Assembly: GCF_011250645.1 (NCBI RefSeq)
Contig: NZ_JAANNO010000003.1
Coordinates: 62,001 to 126,000, forward strand
Source of the DNA: Motilibacter aurantiacus
GTDB taxonomy: Bacteria; Actinomycetota; Actinomycetes; Motilibacterales; Motilibacteraceae
DNA: 64,000 nucleotides
Direction of reading: 5' to 3'
Below, in pieces: positions 1 through 8,425 of this stretch. A program made the position numbers and the translations under genes. The notes below the pieces were generated by a model that worked only from the letters and a program-made list of their open reading frames with translations, did not search any database and was not told the origin of the DNA. Each line of letters opens with the position of its first letter. Position 1 is the first letter of the stretch.

Positions 1-286
1 ACTCCGCGATGGCGCGGGCCCGGTCGTGGACCCCGTCCTTGGCCAGCAGCAGCCTGCTCATCCGCACCGCTTGCTGGTGGTGCGGGACCATCATCTGCGC
101 GAACACGACGTCGGCCGCGTTCGGCGGCTTGGGCCGCACCACGGGCTGGGCGGCCGCCGGGCCGGCGCTCGCCGCCACCGGCTGCGCGGCCGAGACGTCC
201 CTACCCGGCCCGCCGCGCAGGGCCGTCGTGCCGATCAGCGCCGCGGCGACGGCCGCGACGAGCGCCAGGAGCCCGGAAGCTCTCAT
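1..286 (-). CDS. DUF305 family secreted/anchored protein, 3' end cut by window edge
   Basis: The visible 95 residues begin at ATG 286 with a hydrophobic stretch (about residues 5-22) that reads as a signal peptide or membrane anchor. A Pro/Ala linker follows, then the DUF305 signature VFAQMMVPHHQQAVRM (residues 61-76), whose His-His-Gln-Gln core is the conserved part of the family. DUF305 proteins are small extracytoplasmic helical proteins; the cyanobacterial member CopM binds copper. The gene lies 82 bp downstream of the copper amine oxidase catalytic gene on the same strand, so a role in copper supply to that enzyme is an inference from context. The stop codon lies outside the window. Confidence 0.85.
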   Translation of the reverse strand, partial: MRASGLLALVAAVAAALIGTTALRGGPGRDVSAAQPVAASAGPAAAQPVVRPKPPNAADVVFAQMMVPHHQQAVRMSRLLLAKDGVHDRARAIAE

Positions 287-368
287 GGGGTGCGTGCTCC
301 TTGCTGGGGGGACGGGCTGCGACCGGACGGCCGGGCCCGCCAGGGGGCGGGCCCGGCCGGGGGTGCGC

Positions 369-1673
369 TCAGGACGTCGGCCGCCCGACGCGGCCGTTGA
401 CGTAGCGCCGCTGGTCCGGCGTGAGCATGTTCTGCGCGGTGAAGTCGCGCGGCACCAGGTCGAAGCCCTGCCAGTGGAACGGCATCGGGCTCTGGTCCTC
501 GTCGCGCGGGATGTGGTGGAAGCCCACCCGCACCCACATCACCGGGTCGGTCATCGTCTCCCCGTTGACGTACTCGGGCAGCGACGTGCCGATGCACTCC
601 GGGTCCTGGTTGAAGCTCGCGAACTTCTCGCACGCACGATATTGCGTGAACGACACGTCAGGTGTCGTCTCCGGGTGCACCTCGTACGCGTCGTTCGCCC
701 CGAGCTCGAGCTCGTAGGACCGCTTGTGGCCGTCCGTGTTGGTCGTCGGGCTCACGACGCGCCACCACCGGCGGTTCGCCGTGGTGAACGACCCCTCCAC
801 GGGGATGTCCGTCCTGGTGGTCTTGAGGATGGCCGCCCGCCGCCCGACCTCGCCCGTCGGCGCGGTGTCGTACTGCTCCACGGTCTCGTTGCCGGCCCCG
901 CCGATGTTCCAGTTGATCTTCCAGAACGCGGAGTGGTAGTGGTTCGTGGAGAAGTCGGCGAGGTTGGTGCCGATCGGCCACCCGTGGTCGGCGGTCGTGT
1001 AGTCCGAGGGCGCGAGGTCACCCGTCGCTCCGAGCGCGGTGCTGATGGTGCCGTCGTCGGCGAAGCGCCACTCGGTGACGTACTCGTACCAGTCGATCTT
1101 CGAGATCGTGCGCAGGACCAGGTCGTGGCCCTGCTTGCTGTAGAGCGGGCCGGTGCCCGTGGTGTTCCCCGTCTTCGCGCGATAGGCGAAGCCGGATTCC
1201 TCCTCCGAGACGCAGAGGACCATCTTGGTGTCCTCGCCGGTGCCCAGCCACTGCCCGTAGACCTTGCCGCCGGGGCACTCGGCCTTGGTCATGGGCTGCA
1301 TGTAGCGGTCGCCGAAGCCGTACGACGTGATGTCGTTCCACTCGTTGGCGCCGGAGTCGTAGGGGACGTTGAGCTGTGCGAGCGCCGCCTGGTCGATGAG
1401 GGTCGTCGGCGCGCCCTCCCCCGGCGCCTGCACCGCGATCCTCTCCAGCACGAGGCCGGTCTTGGCATCGACCCGCCAGCACATCGTCCAGCGAGTGCCG
1501 TTGTGCAGTTTCTCGTTGACCAGCCCGTTGCTCCCGCAGTAGGCGGCGCGGTCCTTCTCCTTGCTGGCCTCCGCGGTGGAAGCGGTCAGGGTCGAGGCGA
1601 CGAGTACTGCTACCGCCGCCCCGACGCCCGCAGTCGTTGTCCTGCCGAGCATTCGCGGGATCCTCCGGTTCAT
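369..1673 (-). CDS. Copper amine oxidase catalytic domain, separate secreted subunit
   Basis: This 434-aa protein starts at ATG 1673, has a signal peptide (about residues 12-36), and consists of little more than the catalytic domain of copper amine oxidases, which oxidise primary amines to aldehyde, ammonia and H2O2. The expected landmarks are present in order: the catalytic-base aspartate (WND, Asp114), the cofactor tyrosine region (IDWYEY, Tyr196), the His-x-His copper pair (NHYH, His245/His247) and the third copper ligand region (GFHHIPRDED, His386/387). The usual cofactor motif T-x-x-N-Y-(D/E) reads K-I-D-W-Y-E, so the Asn before the tyrosine is replaced by Trp. Standard family members exceed 600 aa because N2 and N3 domains are fused; here those domains sit in the upstream gene, whose stop overlaps this ATG (ATGA). 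Confidence 0.85.
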   Translation of the reverse strand: MNRRIPRMLGRTTTAGVGAAVAVLVASTLTASTAEASKEKDRAAYCGSNGLVNEKLHNGTRWTMCWRVDAKTGLVLERIAVQAPGEGAPTTLIDQAALAQLNVPYDSGANEWNDITSYGFGDRYMQPMTKAECPGGKVYGQWLGTGEDTKMVLCVSEEESGFAYRAKTGNTTGTGPLYSKQGHDLVLRTISKIDWYEYVTEWRFADDGTISTALGATGDLAPSDYTTADHGWPIGTNLADFSTNHYHSAFWKINWNIGGAGNETVEQYDTAPTGEVGRRAAILKTTRTDIPVEGSFTTANRRWWRVVSPTTNTDGHKRSYELELGANDAYEVHPETTPDVSFTQYRACEKFASFNQDPECIGTSLPEYVNGETMTDPVMWVRVGFHHIPRDEDQSPMPFHWQGFDLVPRDFTAQNMLTPDQRRYVNGRVGRPTS

Positions 1674-2563
1674 GAGAGCTGAGCGACGGTCTTGGTGGAC
1701 AGGTTGACGACGAACCCGGTGATGTCGATGAAGGGGCCGTCGTCCGGCAGTTGCGTGATGAACTGCAGGCAACGGTGCTGCCCGCACGTCGGCGCCCCGA
1801 CGTCGCCGGGGCTCGCGACGTACGTCATGCCGTTCGTGACGATCTGGTCGGGCGACACGAACTCCGCCCCCGTCAGCTTCTGGTAAGCCGTCCGGAAGCC
1901 CGCGCTCTCGGGCGCGGCGAGGAAGAGGTCGAACGCGACGGCCGTCTCCTCCACGGAAGCCGGGGGCTGCATCTGCGGGGCCGCGGCGGTCCGCTCGACC
2001 TGGCCCGTCGTCAGGTTCACGACGCGCTTGACGAGCGTGTCGTCGGAGTAGTCGTAGAAGTAGACCGCCGCCCGCCGCGGGGCGTCCTTGGCCACCTCGC
2101 CCGGCAACGGGTCCTCGAGCTCGAACGAGAGGTACTCCGGCCCGGGCTCGCCGGAGACGCCGGTGCCCGTCGCCACGAAGGCCGGGTCCAGCGCGATCTC
2201 CCGGGCCTTCGCGGCCTCGTCGATGGTCACCGGGTCGCGCCCCGTGCCGGCGCCGCGCGGCGCGGGAGTGCCGGCCACCGGCACGGTGTCCTCGGCCGCC
2301 GCCTCGCCTCCACCCGCGGCCGGCGACGTGCCCGCTGCGACGCCCGCTGCGACCCCCGCGCCGCCGGCCGACGGGTCGGCGGCCGGGGCGGGAGCCAACG
2401 TCGAGCTGTTCGCGCCGAGCGGGATGGCGATCGCGAAGATCACGCCGACGGCGCCGGCCACCGCCGCGGCGCGCCCGAGCACGGTACGCACGGAAGGCCT
2501 CCCGGTCGCCCGTCCTCCGCGCGGCGGGTCGGACCCCGCCGCCGCCTCGTCCTCTGTCTCCAC
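1670..2563 (-). CDS. Membrane-anchored N2/N3-like subunit of a split copper amine oxidase
   Basis: The start is GTG 2563, preceded by an AGGAGG ribosome site 5 nt upstream, giving 297 aa. A short cytoplasmic head is followed by one membrane segment (about residues 31-50), a long Ala/Gly/Pro linker (55-110) and a folded region (115-297). The folded region resembles the N2 and N3 domains of copper amine oxidases: an AREIALDPAFV opening, a PRRAAVYFYDY...VVNLTTGQV strand pattern (N2), then an SVEETAVAFDLFLAAPE segment ending in SPDQIV (N3). A Cys pair (CGQHRC, 260-265) could form a disulfide outside the cell. Its TGA overlaps the ATG of the catalytic gene by 4 nt, so translation is coupled and the two products probably form one enzyme. 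N2/N3 assignment is by eye and moderately secure. Confidence 0.7.
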   Translation of the reverse strand: METEDEAAAGSDPPRGGRATGRPSVRTVLGRAAAVAGAVGVIFAIAIPLGANSSTLAPAPAADPSAGGAGVAAGVAAGTSPAAGGGEAAAEDTVPVAGTPAPRGAGTGRDPVTIDEAAKAREIALDPAFVATGTGVSGEPGPEYLSFELEDPLPGEVAKDAPRRAAVYFYDYSDDTLVKRVVNLTTGQVERTAAAPQMQPPASVEETAVAFDLFLAAPESAGFRTAYQKLTGAEFVSPDQIVTNGMTYVASPGDVGAPTCGQHRCLQFITQLPDDGPFIDITGFVVNLSTKTVAQLS

Positions 2564-2892
2564 ACGGGCCTCCTCGTCAGGTTCGCAGAATGCGTCCCGG
2601 GGGCCCGGGCGGCTCTGAGGCGGCCCGGCCTCCACCCCCGGTCGGCGACGAGAACTCTGGGCGCTGACGGCGCGCGCTGGGTTTCCCGACCGTGAAGGTC
2701 TCCGCAACGACACGGCGTCGCGAATGGAGAAAGCGCCGGCCCTTCCGGGTCGACGGGCAGCCCCACCCCCTGGCCGGCGACCACCGGCGACCCCGAGACG
2801 ACGTTCCGGAGAAACCAGGCGGTAACTCCGCACTCCTATCGTCTGGGCCCGGGGGCCGGCCTCCCGCCGGCCGCGTCGTGAAGGGGGGAGCG
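2564..2892. promoter_or_regulatory. Divergent control region of the amine oxidase operon and the IclR gene
   Basis: This 329-bp gap separates the minus-strand amine oxidase operon from the plus-strand IclR regulator. A TATCGT hexamer at 2837-2842 could be the -10 of the IclR gene, and AAGGGGGGAG at 2881-2890 is its ribosome site. I see no convincing long palindrome. Co-regulation of both sides by the IclR protein is an inference from the divergent layout. Confidence 0.4.
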
Positions 2893-3690
2893 GTGACGCC
2901 TGGACCGAGCGGGACGTGGGCTGCGCCCGCGCCGGCAGCCGCTGCCCCGGGCGGGCTTCCCGGGCGCCAGTCCCATGCGGTGCGCAACGCGTTCGCGCTG
3001 CTCGAGGAGGTCGCCCGCGCCGGCCCCGGCGTGACGGCCAAGCAGGTCGCGGGCGCGCTGGGCATGTCGCCCGCCACCACGTACCGGCTGCTCAACCTGC
3101 TCGTCGCGCTGCAGTACGTCGAACGACAGCCCGGCGCCCGCGGCTTCACGCTGGGGCACAAGGTCGCGCACCTGGCAGGGCTGGTCGCGCTCGTGCACGT
3201 GCCCGTGGCCGCCCGCCGGCTGGTCGAGGACCTGCGGTCCCGTGCCCGGACGGGCGTCCACCTGGCGTCCTACGCCGGCGGCGTCCCGGCGCTCGTCGAC
3301 CCCGACCCGGCCCAGCCGCCTCCCCCCGCCGACGCGTTCGCCCGGCACCTGCACGCCTCGGCGTTCGGCAAGCTGCTGCTCGCCGAGTCCGGGGACTGGC
3401 GCCGTTCCCTCGGTGAGGCACCGCTGCGCAGGCTGACGCCGCAGACGCTGGTCTCGCCGGCCGACCTGGACGCCGAGCTCACGGGCGTCGGGCGCGCGGA
3501 CAGGGCGTACCAGATCGGGGAGCTGCGCCCGATGCGGGCGTGCCTCGCACTGCCCGTGCGCAGCTCCGCCGGCCGGCTCGTCGCGGCCGTGGCGCTGACC
3601 GGCGTGCCCGAGCAGATCCGCTCGCTCGACCCGCGCGACGTCGCGGCCGCCGCCCGCACCGCTCGCGAGCTGTCGCCCTTGTTGACCTGA
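2893..3690 (+). CDS. IclR family transcriptional regulator
   Basis: The start is GTG 2893 behind a strong purine-rich ribosome site, giving 265 aa; longer upstream extensions lack family similarity. The N-terminal winged helix-turn-helix (about residues 30-90) contains ARAGPGVTAKQVAGALGMSPATTYRLLNLLVALQYV-type spacing typical of IclR, with the recognition helix at SPATTYRLLNLL. The C-terminal effector domain (about 95-265) includes LHASAFGKLLLA and the final RELSPLLT helix. IclR proteins bind small carbon or aromatic ligands and usually control a neighbouring catabolic operon. The divergent amine oxidase operon is the obvious candidate target. It ends 3 bp from the convergent gcvT stop. Confidence 0.85.
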   Translation: MTPGPSGTWAAPAPAAAAPGGLPGRQSHAVRNAFALLEEVARAGPGVTAKQVAGALGMSPATTYRLLNLLVALQYVERQPGARGFTLGHKVAHLAGLVALVHVPVAARRLVEDLRSRARTGVHLASYAGGVPALVDPDPAQPPPPADAFARHLHASAFGKLLLAESGDWRRSLGEAPLRRLTPQTLVSPADLDAELTGVGRADRAYQIGELRPMRACLALPVRSSAGRLVAAVALTGVPEQIRSLDPRDVAAAARTARELSPLLT

Positions 3691-7051: not shown

Positions 7052-8425
7052 GTGGCGGACAACGCCTTCGACGTCGTGATCCTCGGCGGAGGCAGCGGCG
7101 GCTACGCCTGTGCCTTCCGCGCCGCGGAGCTCGGCCTGACCGTCGCGCTCATCGAGAAGGACAAGGTCGGGGGCACCTGCCTGCACCGCGGCTGCATCCC
7201 CACCAAGGCGCTCCTGCACGCGGCCGAGATCGCCGACGGCGCCCGGGAGAGCGAGCAGTTCGGCGTGCGCGCCACGCTCGAGGGCATCGACATGCCCGGC
7301 GTGAACAAGTACAAGGACGCGACGATCTCCCGCCTCTACAAGGGCCTGCAGGGCCTGGTGAAGGCGCGCAAGGTCACCTACGTCGAGGGCTACGGCAAGC
7401 TCGTCGCGCCCAACGTGGTGGAGGTCGACGGCGCCGCCTACCGCGGCCGCAACGTCGTGCTGGCGACCGGCTCGGTGCCGAAGTCGCTGCCCGGCCTCGA
7501 GATCGACGGCGACCGCATCATCACCAGCGACCACGCGCTGCAGCTCGAGCACGTCCCCAGCTCGGTCATCGTCCTGGGCGGCGGGGTCATCGGCGTCGAG
7601 TTCGCCAGCGTCTGGAAGTCCTTCGGCGCCGACGTCACCATCGTCGAGGCGCTCCCTCACCTCGTCCCTCTCGAGGACGAGTCCAGCTCCAAGCTGCTCG
7701 AGCGCGCGTTCCGCCGCCGCGGCATCAAGTACGAGCTGGGCAACCGCTTCAACGGGGTCGAGCGCACCGACTCCGGGGTCAAGGTCTCGCTGGCCGACGG
7801 CAAGCAGATCGAGGCCGACCTCATGCTCGTCGCCGTCGGCCGCGGCCCGGTGTCGCAGGGCCTCGGCTACGAGGAGGCCGGCGTCCGGACCGACCGCGGC
7901 TACGTGATCGTCGACGAGTACTGCCGGACCAGCGTCCCCAACGTGTACGCCGTGGGCGACCTCATCCCGACGCTGCAGCTGGCCCACGTCGGCTTCGCCG
8001 AGGGCATCCTCGTCGCCGAGCAGATCGCCGGCGTCGCCACGACGCCGATCGACTACGACGGCGTCCCGCGAGTCACCTACTCGGAGCCGGAGGTCGCCTC
8101 GGTCGGCCTCACCGAGGCCAAGGCCACGGAGAAGTACGGCGAGGTCGAGACCCTCGTCTACGACCTGGGTGGCAACGGCCGCAGCCAGATCCTCAAGACG
8201 CAGGGCTCGGTCAAGCTCGTCCGGCAGAAGGACGGCCCCGTCGTGGGCATCCACATGGTCGGCTCGCGCGTCGGCGAGCTCATCGCGGAGGGCCAGCTCA
8301 TCTACAACTGGGAGGCGCTGCCGGCCGAGGTCGCGCAGCTGATCCACCCGCACCCGACCCAGTCGGAGGCCCTCGGGGAGGCGCACCTCGCCCTCGCCGG
8401 CAAGCCCCTGCACGTGCACGGCTGA
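7052..8425 (+). CDS. lpdA: Dihydrolipoyl dehydrogenase (E3)
   Basis: The 457-aa flavoprotein reoxidises dihydrolipoyl groups with NAD+ in 2-oxoacid dehydrogenase and glycine cleavage complexes. It shows the N-terminal FAD loop (VVILGGGSGGYACAFRAAELG), the redox-active disulfide GGTCLHRGCIPTK, the NAD loop VIVLGGGVIGVEFASVWKSFG, the second FAD motif VYAVGDL, and the C-terminal dimer His-Pro-His-Pro-T motif (HPHPTQSE) that supplies the acid-base histidine. GTG 7052 has an AGGAGA site 5-6 nt upstream. sucB follows after 58 bp on the same strand, forming an E3-E2 operon. Confidence 0.97.
   Translation: MADNAFDVVILGGGSGGYACAFRAAELGLTVALIEKDKVGGTCLHRGCIPTKALLHAAEIADGARESEQFGVRATLEGIDMPGVNKYKDATISRLYKGLQGLVKARKVTYVEGYGKLVAPNVVEVDGAAYRGRNVVLATGSVPKSLPGLEIDGDRIITSDHALQLEHVPSSVIVLGGGVIGVEFASVWKSFGADVTIVEALPHLVPLEDESSSKLLERAFRRRGIKYELGNRFNGVERTDSGVKVSLADGKQIEADLMLVAVGRGPVSQGLGYEEAGVRTDRGYVIVDEYCRTSVPNVYAVGDLIPTLQLAHVGFAEGILVAEQIAGVATTPIDYDGVPRVTYSEPEVASVGLTEAKATEKYGEVETLVYDLGGNGRSQILKTQGSVKLVRQKDGPVVGIHMVGSRVGELIAEGQLIYNWEALPAEVAQLIHPHPTQSEALGEAHLALAGKPLHVHG

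What the first reader, a model, noticed from the sequence alone, without database searches (positions are those of the whole stretch)
1..2563. Copper amine oxidase split into two translationally coupled proteins, next to a DUF305 protein
The sequence shows a membrane-anchored protein with N2/N3-like domains whose TGA overlaps the ATG of a secreted protein made only of the catalytic domain. Amine oxidases of this family are normally one chain of more than 600 aa. All three copper histidines and the catalytic Asp are kept in the catalytic half. The third gene encodes DUF305, a family with a known copper-binding member (CopM). I infer a membrane-tethered two-subunit amine oxidase with its own copper supply, possibly controlled by the divergent IclR protein.
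Basis: partly seen in the sequence, partly recalled or inferred. Interest (0 to 1): 0.68.

Follow-up and report, generated by a model that had tools for sequence, protein, structure and literature searches.

The report
Two-gene copper amine oxidase family
A copper enzyme that oxidises amines, known elsewhere as one long protein, is encoded here and in dozens of other actinobacterial genomes as two separate exported proteins with an altered active-site motif, often beside a probable copper-binding protein; the split is real and conserved, but nobody has yet shown the two halves working together.

Summary
The split is real and conserved. In window 369-2563 (-) a 297-aa exported or anchored protein is followed by a secreted copper-amine-oxidase catalytic domain. 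All 85 locus rows examined in Actinomycetota (84 distinct; 80 chosen by the catalytic half alone) have the N gene directly upstream, same strand; none is fused. In 397 genomes of the phylum the two halves occur in the same six. The 297-aa protein is N2+N3 by predicted fold (top 50 PDB hits all copper amine oxidases) and by profile match to fused oxidases. The split family is one clade (100/100) against 34 fused sequences. Catalytic residues are invariant (84/84), but the Asn before the topaquinone Tyr is Trp in 78/84; consensus T-x-x-N-Y-D/E is kept in 0/84 split versus 38/39 fused. DUF305 (CopM-like) lies just downstream in 45/85. Corrections: the catalytic chain probably starts at ATG 1652, 17 nt after the N stop, not at the overlapping ATG; DUF305 and IclR are not universal; membrane anchoring of N is uncertain. 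Best reading: a two-chain, cell-surface amine oxidase. Complex formation, TPQ and substrate are inferred.

The parts
1670..2563 (-). N-subunit gene: hydrophobic N-terminal segment (residues ~32-51), ~55-residue Ala/Pro/Gly-rich linker, then N2 and N3 domains of a copper amine oxidase (297 aa, GTG start)
   Evidence: AF2 N2/N3 secondary structure, pLDDT mostly above 90 from residue ~111; Foldseek: top 50 PDB matches all CAOs, best 1.1e-7; profile matches fused CAO N-termini
369..1673 (-). Catalytic-subunit gene: secreted copper amine oxidase catalytic domain (D4) only; 434 aa from the overlapping ATG, 427 aa from the likelier ATG at 1652
   Evidence: PF01179 1.8e-37; AF2 pLDDT 87; Foldseek CAOs 1.3e-24; start site
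1650..1652 (-). Probable true start codon (ATG) of the catalytic chain, with GGAGG at 1662-1666 (-)
   Evidence: perfect Shine-Dalgarno, conserved in M. deserti where the overlapping codon is GTG
1670..1673 (-). ATGA overlap of the N stop and the upstream in-frame ATG (probably not the start used)
1086..1091 (-). Codons for W195-Y196: Trp in place of the consensus Asn, then the topaquinone-precursor Tyr
   Evidence: Y 84/84; W 78/84, N 6/84
1332..1334 (-). Codon for D114, catalytic base
   Evidence: 84/84 invariant; aligned by spacing to AGAO Asp298
933..941 (-). Codons for H245-Y-H247, copper ligands 1 and 2
   Evidence: both His 84/84
513..515 (-). Codon for H387, copper ligand 3
   Evidence: 84/84
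1..286 (-). 5' part of a DUF305 / CopM-type gene (217 aa; continues beyond the window, whole in L035 7633-8286)
   Evidence: same-strand neighbour in 45/85 rows
2692..3690 (+). Divergent IclR-family regulator (likely start nearer 2893); candidate regulator only
   Evidence: HTH_IclR 1.6e-11, IclR_C 4.4e-11; 24/85 rows

Best explanation
The locus encodes a two-chain, exported copper amine oxidase. The first gene makes an N subunit: an export/anchor segment, a flexible linker and the N2 and N3 domains. The second makes a separately secreted catalytic chain carrying the three Cu histidines, the catalytic Asp and the Tyr that is oxidised in place, with Cu and O2, to topaquinone. Outside the membrane two of each chain would assemble into the usual CAO dimer (inferred), with N3 probably completing the substrate channel and, in the window's species, the hydrophobic segment of N possibly holding the enzyme at the membrane (inferred). 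It would turn a primary amine, O2 and water into an aldehyde, ammonia and H2O2 (inferred from the conserved active site). In many lineages a downstream CopM-like protein may help load or buffer copper (inferred). Shown here: the two-gene architecture, its conservation, the domain identities, the invariant catalytic residues and the Asn-to-Trp change. Not shown: complex formation, TPQ, activity, substrate.
For: All 85 locus rows (84 distinct) have N immediately upstream on the same strand and none has N and C in one open frame. In 397 genomes of the phylum the strong C matches (six, E below 1e-189) and strong N matches (the same six, E below 1e-81) coincide, with a wide gap to fused CAOs at about 1e-35. 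N folds as N2+N3, and the 50 PDB matches listed are all CAOs. The N profile also matches the N-terminal region of more than 20 fused CAOs and the C profile the rest of the same chains, so the order is colinear. Catalytic Y105, D114, Y196, H245, H247, H387 are 84/84. In three genomes with two copies each paralogue keeps its own N type. Export signals on both chains; sortase-type tails on 15 Microbacteriaceae catalytic chains.
Against: No direct evidence of N-C contact: a joint structure prediction could not be run, and the N/C distance correlation (r 0.95) is expected from co-inheritance alone. The Asn before the TPQ Tyr is Trp in 78/84; in AGAO the N381A change slowed TPQ formation 180-fold and kcat 160-fold (PMC9491219), so activity could be low or altered. 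N alone gives no Pfam match above cut-off.
Confidence: 0.7

Rival explanations
1. The catalytic chain works alone as a minimal D4-only amine oxidase, and the N protein is a separate accessory, such as a surface tether, folding helper or regulator bound only transiently.
For: D4 contributes most active-site residues (PMC3382800); the C chain has its own signal peptide and in Microbacteriaceae its own wall anchor; gene spacing varies up to about 140 nt.
Against: N is never missing in 85 rows and keeps the full N2+N3 fold in the canonical order; paralogous C chains keep their own N type.
Confidence: 0.18
2. The pair is an amine-oxidase-like protein that no longer oxidises amines with topaquinone, for example a copper-binding or differently modified enzyme.
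For: The TPQ consensus T-x-x-N-Y-D/E is absent in all 84 (Asn kept in 6), against 38/39 fused rows; strong divergence from fused CAOs (branches of about 2 changes per column).
Against: Y196, Y105, D114 and all three Cu histidines are 84/84 invariant, which a dead enzyme would not be expected to keep; six members retain N-Y-E.
Confidence: 0.1
3. Frameshift, sequencing or assembly error in a normal one-chain oxidase.
For: A canonical CAO in genome G051 is broken at the same boundary, so such breaks do occur.
Against: The same two-gene order in 85 rows from many genera, C chains with their own start and signal peptide, and gaps of varying length.
Confidence: 0.01

Closest known systems
Arthrobacter globiformis phenylethylamine oxidase (AGAO), bacterial copper amine oxidase, N2-N3-D4
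   Same: Same domains in the same order; the C chain aligns from residue ~233-241 of AGAO chains to ~618; the N chain matches the same structures by fold; Cu ligands, catalytic Asp and precursor Tyr kept.
   Different: Two genes and two exported chains instead of one; Trp for Asn381; consensus Thr lost; about 20% identity in structural alignment.
E. coli TynA (ECAO)
   Same: Same catalytic domain fold.
   Different: One chain with an extra D1 domain (PMC3382800); canonical TPQ motif (own knowledge).
Human VAP-1/AOC3 (membrane primary amine oxidase)
   Same: Surface-held CAO with an N-terminal membrane segment, a possible analogue of a tethered N chain; the C chain matches its D4.
   Different: Single chain, eukaryotic, canonical motif (own knowledge).
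CopM (DUF305) of Synechocystis
   Same: The window neighbour is DUF305 with two HH motifs; CopM binds Cu(I) (PMC4335983).
   Different: No evidence that CopM metallates an amine oxidase; the window protein scores 84.5 against a 90-bit cut-off.

Membership tests
Copper amine oxidase (TPQ) superfamily | D4 catalytic domain (PF01179) | tested here: met
   E 1.8e-37, 129.7 bits over cut-off 27; Foldseek about 1e-24
Copper amine oxidase (TPQ) superfamily | Three Cu-ligand histidines | tested here: met
   H245, H247, H387, 84/84
Copper amine oxidase (TPQ) superfamily | Catalytic-base Asp and TPQ-positioning Tyr | tested here: met
   D114 and Y105, 84/84
[quoted passage not shown]
   Tyr 84/84 and Glu 83/84 kept, but Asn is Trp in 78/84 and the Thr is lost; full consensus 0/84 against 38/39 fused rows. 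The claim is therefore a divergent sister group of the canonical family, not a canonical member
Copper amine oxidase (TPQ) superfamily | N2 and N3 domains present | tested here: met
   Supplied by the neighbouring gene:
Canonical single-chain CAO | N2-N3-D4 on one chain | tested here: not met
   0 of 85 rows fused
Copper amine oxidase (TPQ) superfamily | TPQ formed; amine oxidase activity; dimer | not testable with these tools
   Needs protein chemistry
DUF305 / CopM copper-binding proteins | DUF305 domain with HH motifs | tested here: met
   PF03713 8.5e-40; two HH motifs in the sequence
DUF305 / CopM copper-binding proteins | NCBIfam CopM curated cut-off (90 bits) | tested here: inconclusive
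   84.5 bits, two stretches

The most novel reading that the evidence does not exclude
A natural two-subunit quinoenzyme clade in which Trp next to the cofactor Tyr changes the chemistry: it replaces the Asn that restrains topaquinone and gives a different resting conformation, electron-transfer path or cofactor, with the separately made N subunit controlling access to the active site.
Probability: 0.15. Interest if true: 0.85.

Novelty: new variant of a known kind. Interest (0 to 1): 0.6.

Why it matters
A review describes all structurally characterised copper amine oxidases as homodimers of one 70-80 kDa chain with the domains in a row (PMC3382800). Here is a widespread actinobacterial clade in which that chain is cut at the N3/D4 border and the parts are exported separately. 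It offers a natural way to ask what N2/N3 do, since the catalytic chain can be made with and without them, and why the highly conserved Asn beside topaquinone can be Trp when its removal in AGAO costs over 100-fold in rate. Six family members with N-Y-E are a built-in comparison.

Tried and rejected
Assembly error or frameshift: rejected by 85 conserved rows. Fused relative inside the clade: none found. Direct Pfam or PDB sequence hit for the N protein: nothing significant, so fold and reverse-profile tests were used. Translational overlap as a conserved feature: rejected. IclR operator: only G+C-rich palindromes in the intergenic region, not persuasive. Plasmid search: only distant (about 25-27% identical) oxidases, no N protein. 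Literature: no description of a split CAO, or of DUF305 with amine oxidase, in the held open-access library; subscription papers were not searchable, so 'undescribed' is provisional. Whether Trp arose once is unresolved: the six Asn members are nested inside the clade with only moderate support.

Full report
1. Observation. Reading the minus strand, the window starts inside a DUF305 gene (2-286), preceded by a 434-aa copper-amine-oxidase catalytic domain (369-1673) and a 297-aa protein (1670-2563), with a divergent IclR gene (2692-3690, +). The catalytic chain matches PF01179 at 1.8e-37 over almost the whole profile; the N chain has no Pfam match, only a weak match to the N2 part of an NCBIfam amine oxidase model (E 9e-4). 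The genome is a Motilibacter-like actinobacterium: the nearest named relative is Motilibacter deserti, 92% identical in the catalytic chain. The window genome holds only this one PF01179 match.

2. Is the split real? Among 60 relatives the five with a close catalytic homologue are the five with a close, adjacent N homologue (G001, G022, G048, G057, G059; a sixth, weak N match in G053 has a stop inside). A scan of one genome per species for 84,980 species with the catalytic alignment gave at least 487 relatives; the best 80 were kept. Adding the window locus and four others gives 85 rows (one contig appears twice, so 84 distinct). All 85 have the N gene directly upstream on the same strand; none has N and C in one open frame. 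In an even sample of 397 genomes of the phylum, six have the family's catalytic chain (E below 1e-189; next best 1.9e-35) and the same six have N (E below 1e-81). One row, L051, has a frameshift in the catalytic gene. The break is therefore not an assembly error.

3. Gene border. The N stop and an in-frame ATG overlap as ATGA, but the ATG at 1652 has a perfect Shine-Dalgarno and gives a clean signal peptide (MLGRTTTAGVGAAVAVLVASTLTASTAEA), and it is the conserved one in M. deserti. Starts about 17 nt after the N stop are common in Actinoplanes and Microbacterium; Streptomyces has gaps of about 27-140 nt. Co-transcription is likely; overlap coupling is doubtful.

4. What the N chain is. AlphaFold2 with 48 family sequences gives two alpha/beta units after residue 110 with pLDDT mostly above 90, an unstructured linker of about 55 residues and a hydrophobic N-terminal segment. 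Foldseek against the PDB: 54 matches at E below 0.001, and the 50 listed are all copper amine oxidases (best 1.1e-7). Independently, the N profile finds the N-terminal part of more than 20 fused oxidases while the catalytic profile finds the rest of the same chains (weakest E-values near 0.01 on a small search space). So N is N2+N3 and the cut is at the N3/D4 border.

5. What the C chain is. AlphaFold2 pLDDT 87; the best Foldseek matches are copper amine oxidases at 1.3e-24. Y105, D114, Y196, H245, H247 and H387 are invariant in 84 rows; by alignment these are the TPQ-contacting Tyr, catalytic Asp, precursor Tyr and copper ligands (Asp placed by spacing, Tyr105 and Asp114 by hand). C133 and C154 align with cysteines of AGAO; C46 and C65, and C260 and C265 of N, are further invariant cysteines.

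6. The altered motif. [quoted passage not shown] In the split family Asn is Trp in 78/84; six have Asn (three Solirubrobacter rows, and three Actinoplanes rows of a second type). The full consensus is 0/84 split, 38/39 fused rows. In AGAO, N381A still formed TPQ but 180-fold slower and with 160-fold lower kcat (PMC9491219). So Trp is compatible with an efficient enzyme only if something compensates; this is the most interesting open point.

7. Ancestry. In a tree of 75 catalytic domains the 41 split rows lie on one side of a branch with 100/100 support against 34 fused rows. The branches between are long (about 2 changes per column), so this shows one group, not when the split happened. The six Asn members are nested with moderate support, so reversion and repeated change cannot be told apart. 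In three genomes with two copies (A. regularis, A. cyaneus, S. humidus) each C and its own N have the same or closely overlapping nearest relatives.

8. Neighbourhood. DUF305 follows on the same strand in 45/85 rows: Motilibacter, Micromonosporaceae, Actinomadura, Microbacteriaceae, Jiangella; not Streptomyces, Nocardioides or Solirubrobacter. The window's copy has both HH motifs and a CopM match of 84.5 bits against a 90-bit cut-off. IclR is found in 24/85 rows, and an amino-acid permease of the APC type lies divergently about 350-540 bp upstream of N in 18 rows, giving IclR-permease / N-C-DUF305 in Phytohabitans, Plantactinospora, Actinomadura, Microbacterium and Agromyces. This fits amine or amino-acid metabolism but names no substrate; the permease matched no curated NCBIfam family above its cut-off. 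In the window itself no permease lies between IclR and N.

9. Location. Both chains have export signals. The window's N chain has a leading tail of about 30 residues and a 19-residue hydrophobic segment (mean Kyte-Doolittle 2.24), as in a signal anchor; Streptomyces N chains look cleavable (no signal-peptide program was available, so this is by eye and hydropathy). In 15 Microbacteriaceae rows the catalytic chain ends in an LxxTG-hydrophobic-Arg tail, a sortase-type signal. So surface attachment recurs, by different means.

10. Mechanism and confidence. A two-chain amine oxidase is the best reading (0.7). The review lists substrate-channel positions 155 and 156 (HPAO-1 numbering), which would lie before the D4 domain; by inference the N chain would supply them. 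Direct N-C contact, TPQ, activity and copper delivery are untested. Novelty: a new variant of a known kind, since the parts are all recognisable but the two-chain form and the Trp motif are not described in the library searched.

Noticed in passing
L022 245-2700 (G051:C1, about 3908.5-3911.0 kb): A canonical-type copper amine oxidase is broken into two frames at the same N3/D4 border (ATGTGATGGGC, stop overlapping an ATG); both halves match Pfam strongly. Frameshift or an independent second split; seen in one genome only.
   Followed up: partly
L152 417-2075, L156 361-2007, L161 1357-2964: 536-553-aa chains with N2/N3-like starts and only partial matches to the CAO catalytic domain: a shortened, divergent CAO-like group.
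   Followed up: partly
L064, L071, L104 and 12 other Microbacteriaceae loci: Catalytic chains with a low-complexity tail and an LxxTG sortase-type signal, i.e. probably wall-anchored amine oxidases.
   Followed up: partly
L031, L084, L086, L099: Catalytic chains with C-terminal, apparently Ig-like tails (Nocardioides, Actinoplanes, Solirubrobacter).
   Followed up: no
L051 around 8291-8309: Frameshift in the catalytic gene of Phytohabitans suffuscus: pseudogene or sequencing error.
   Followed up: no
window 2625-2742: A stretch between N and the IclR gene is 77% identical to M. deserti over about 120 nt: possible shared promoter/operator region.
   Followed up: partly
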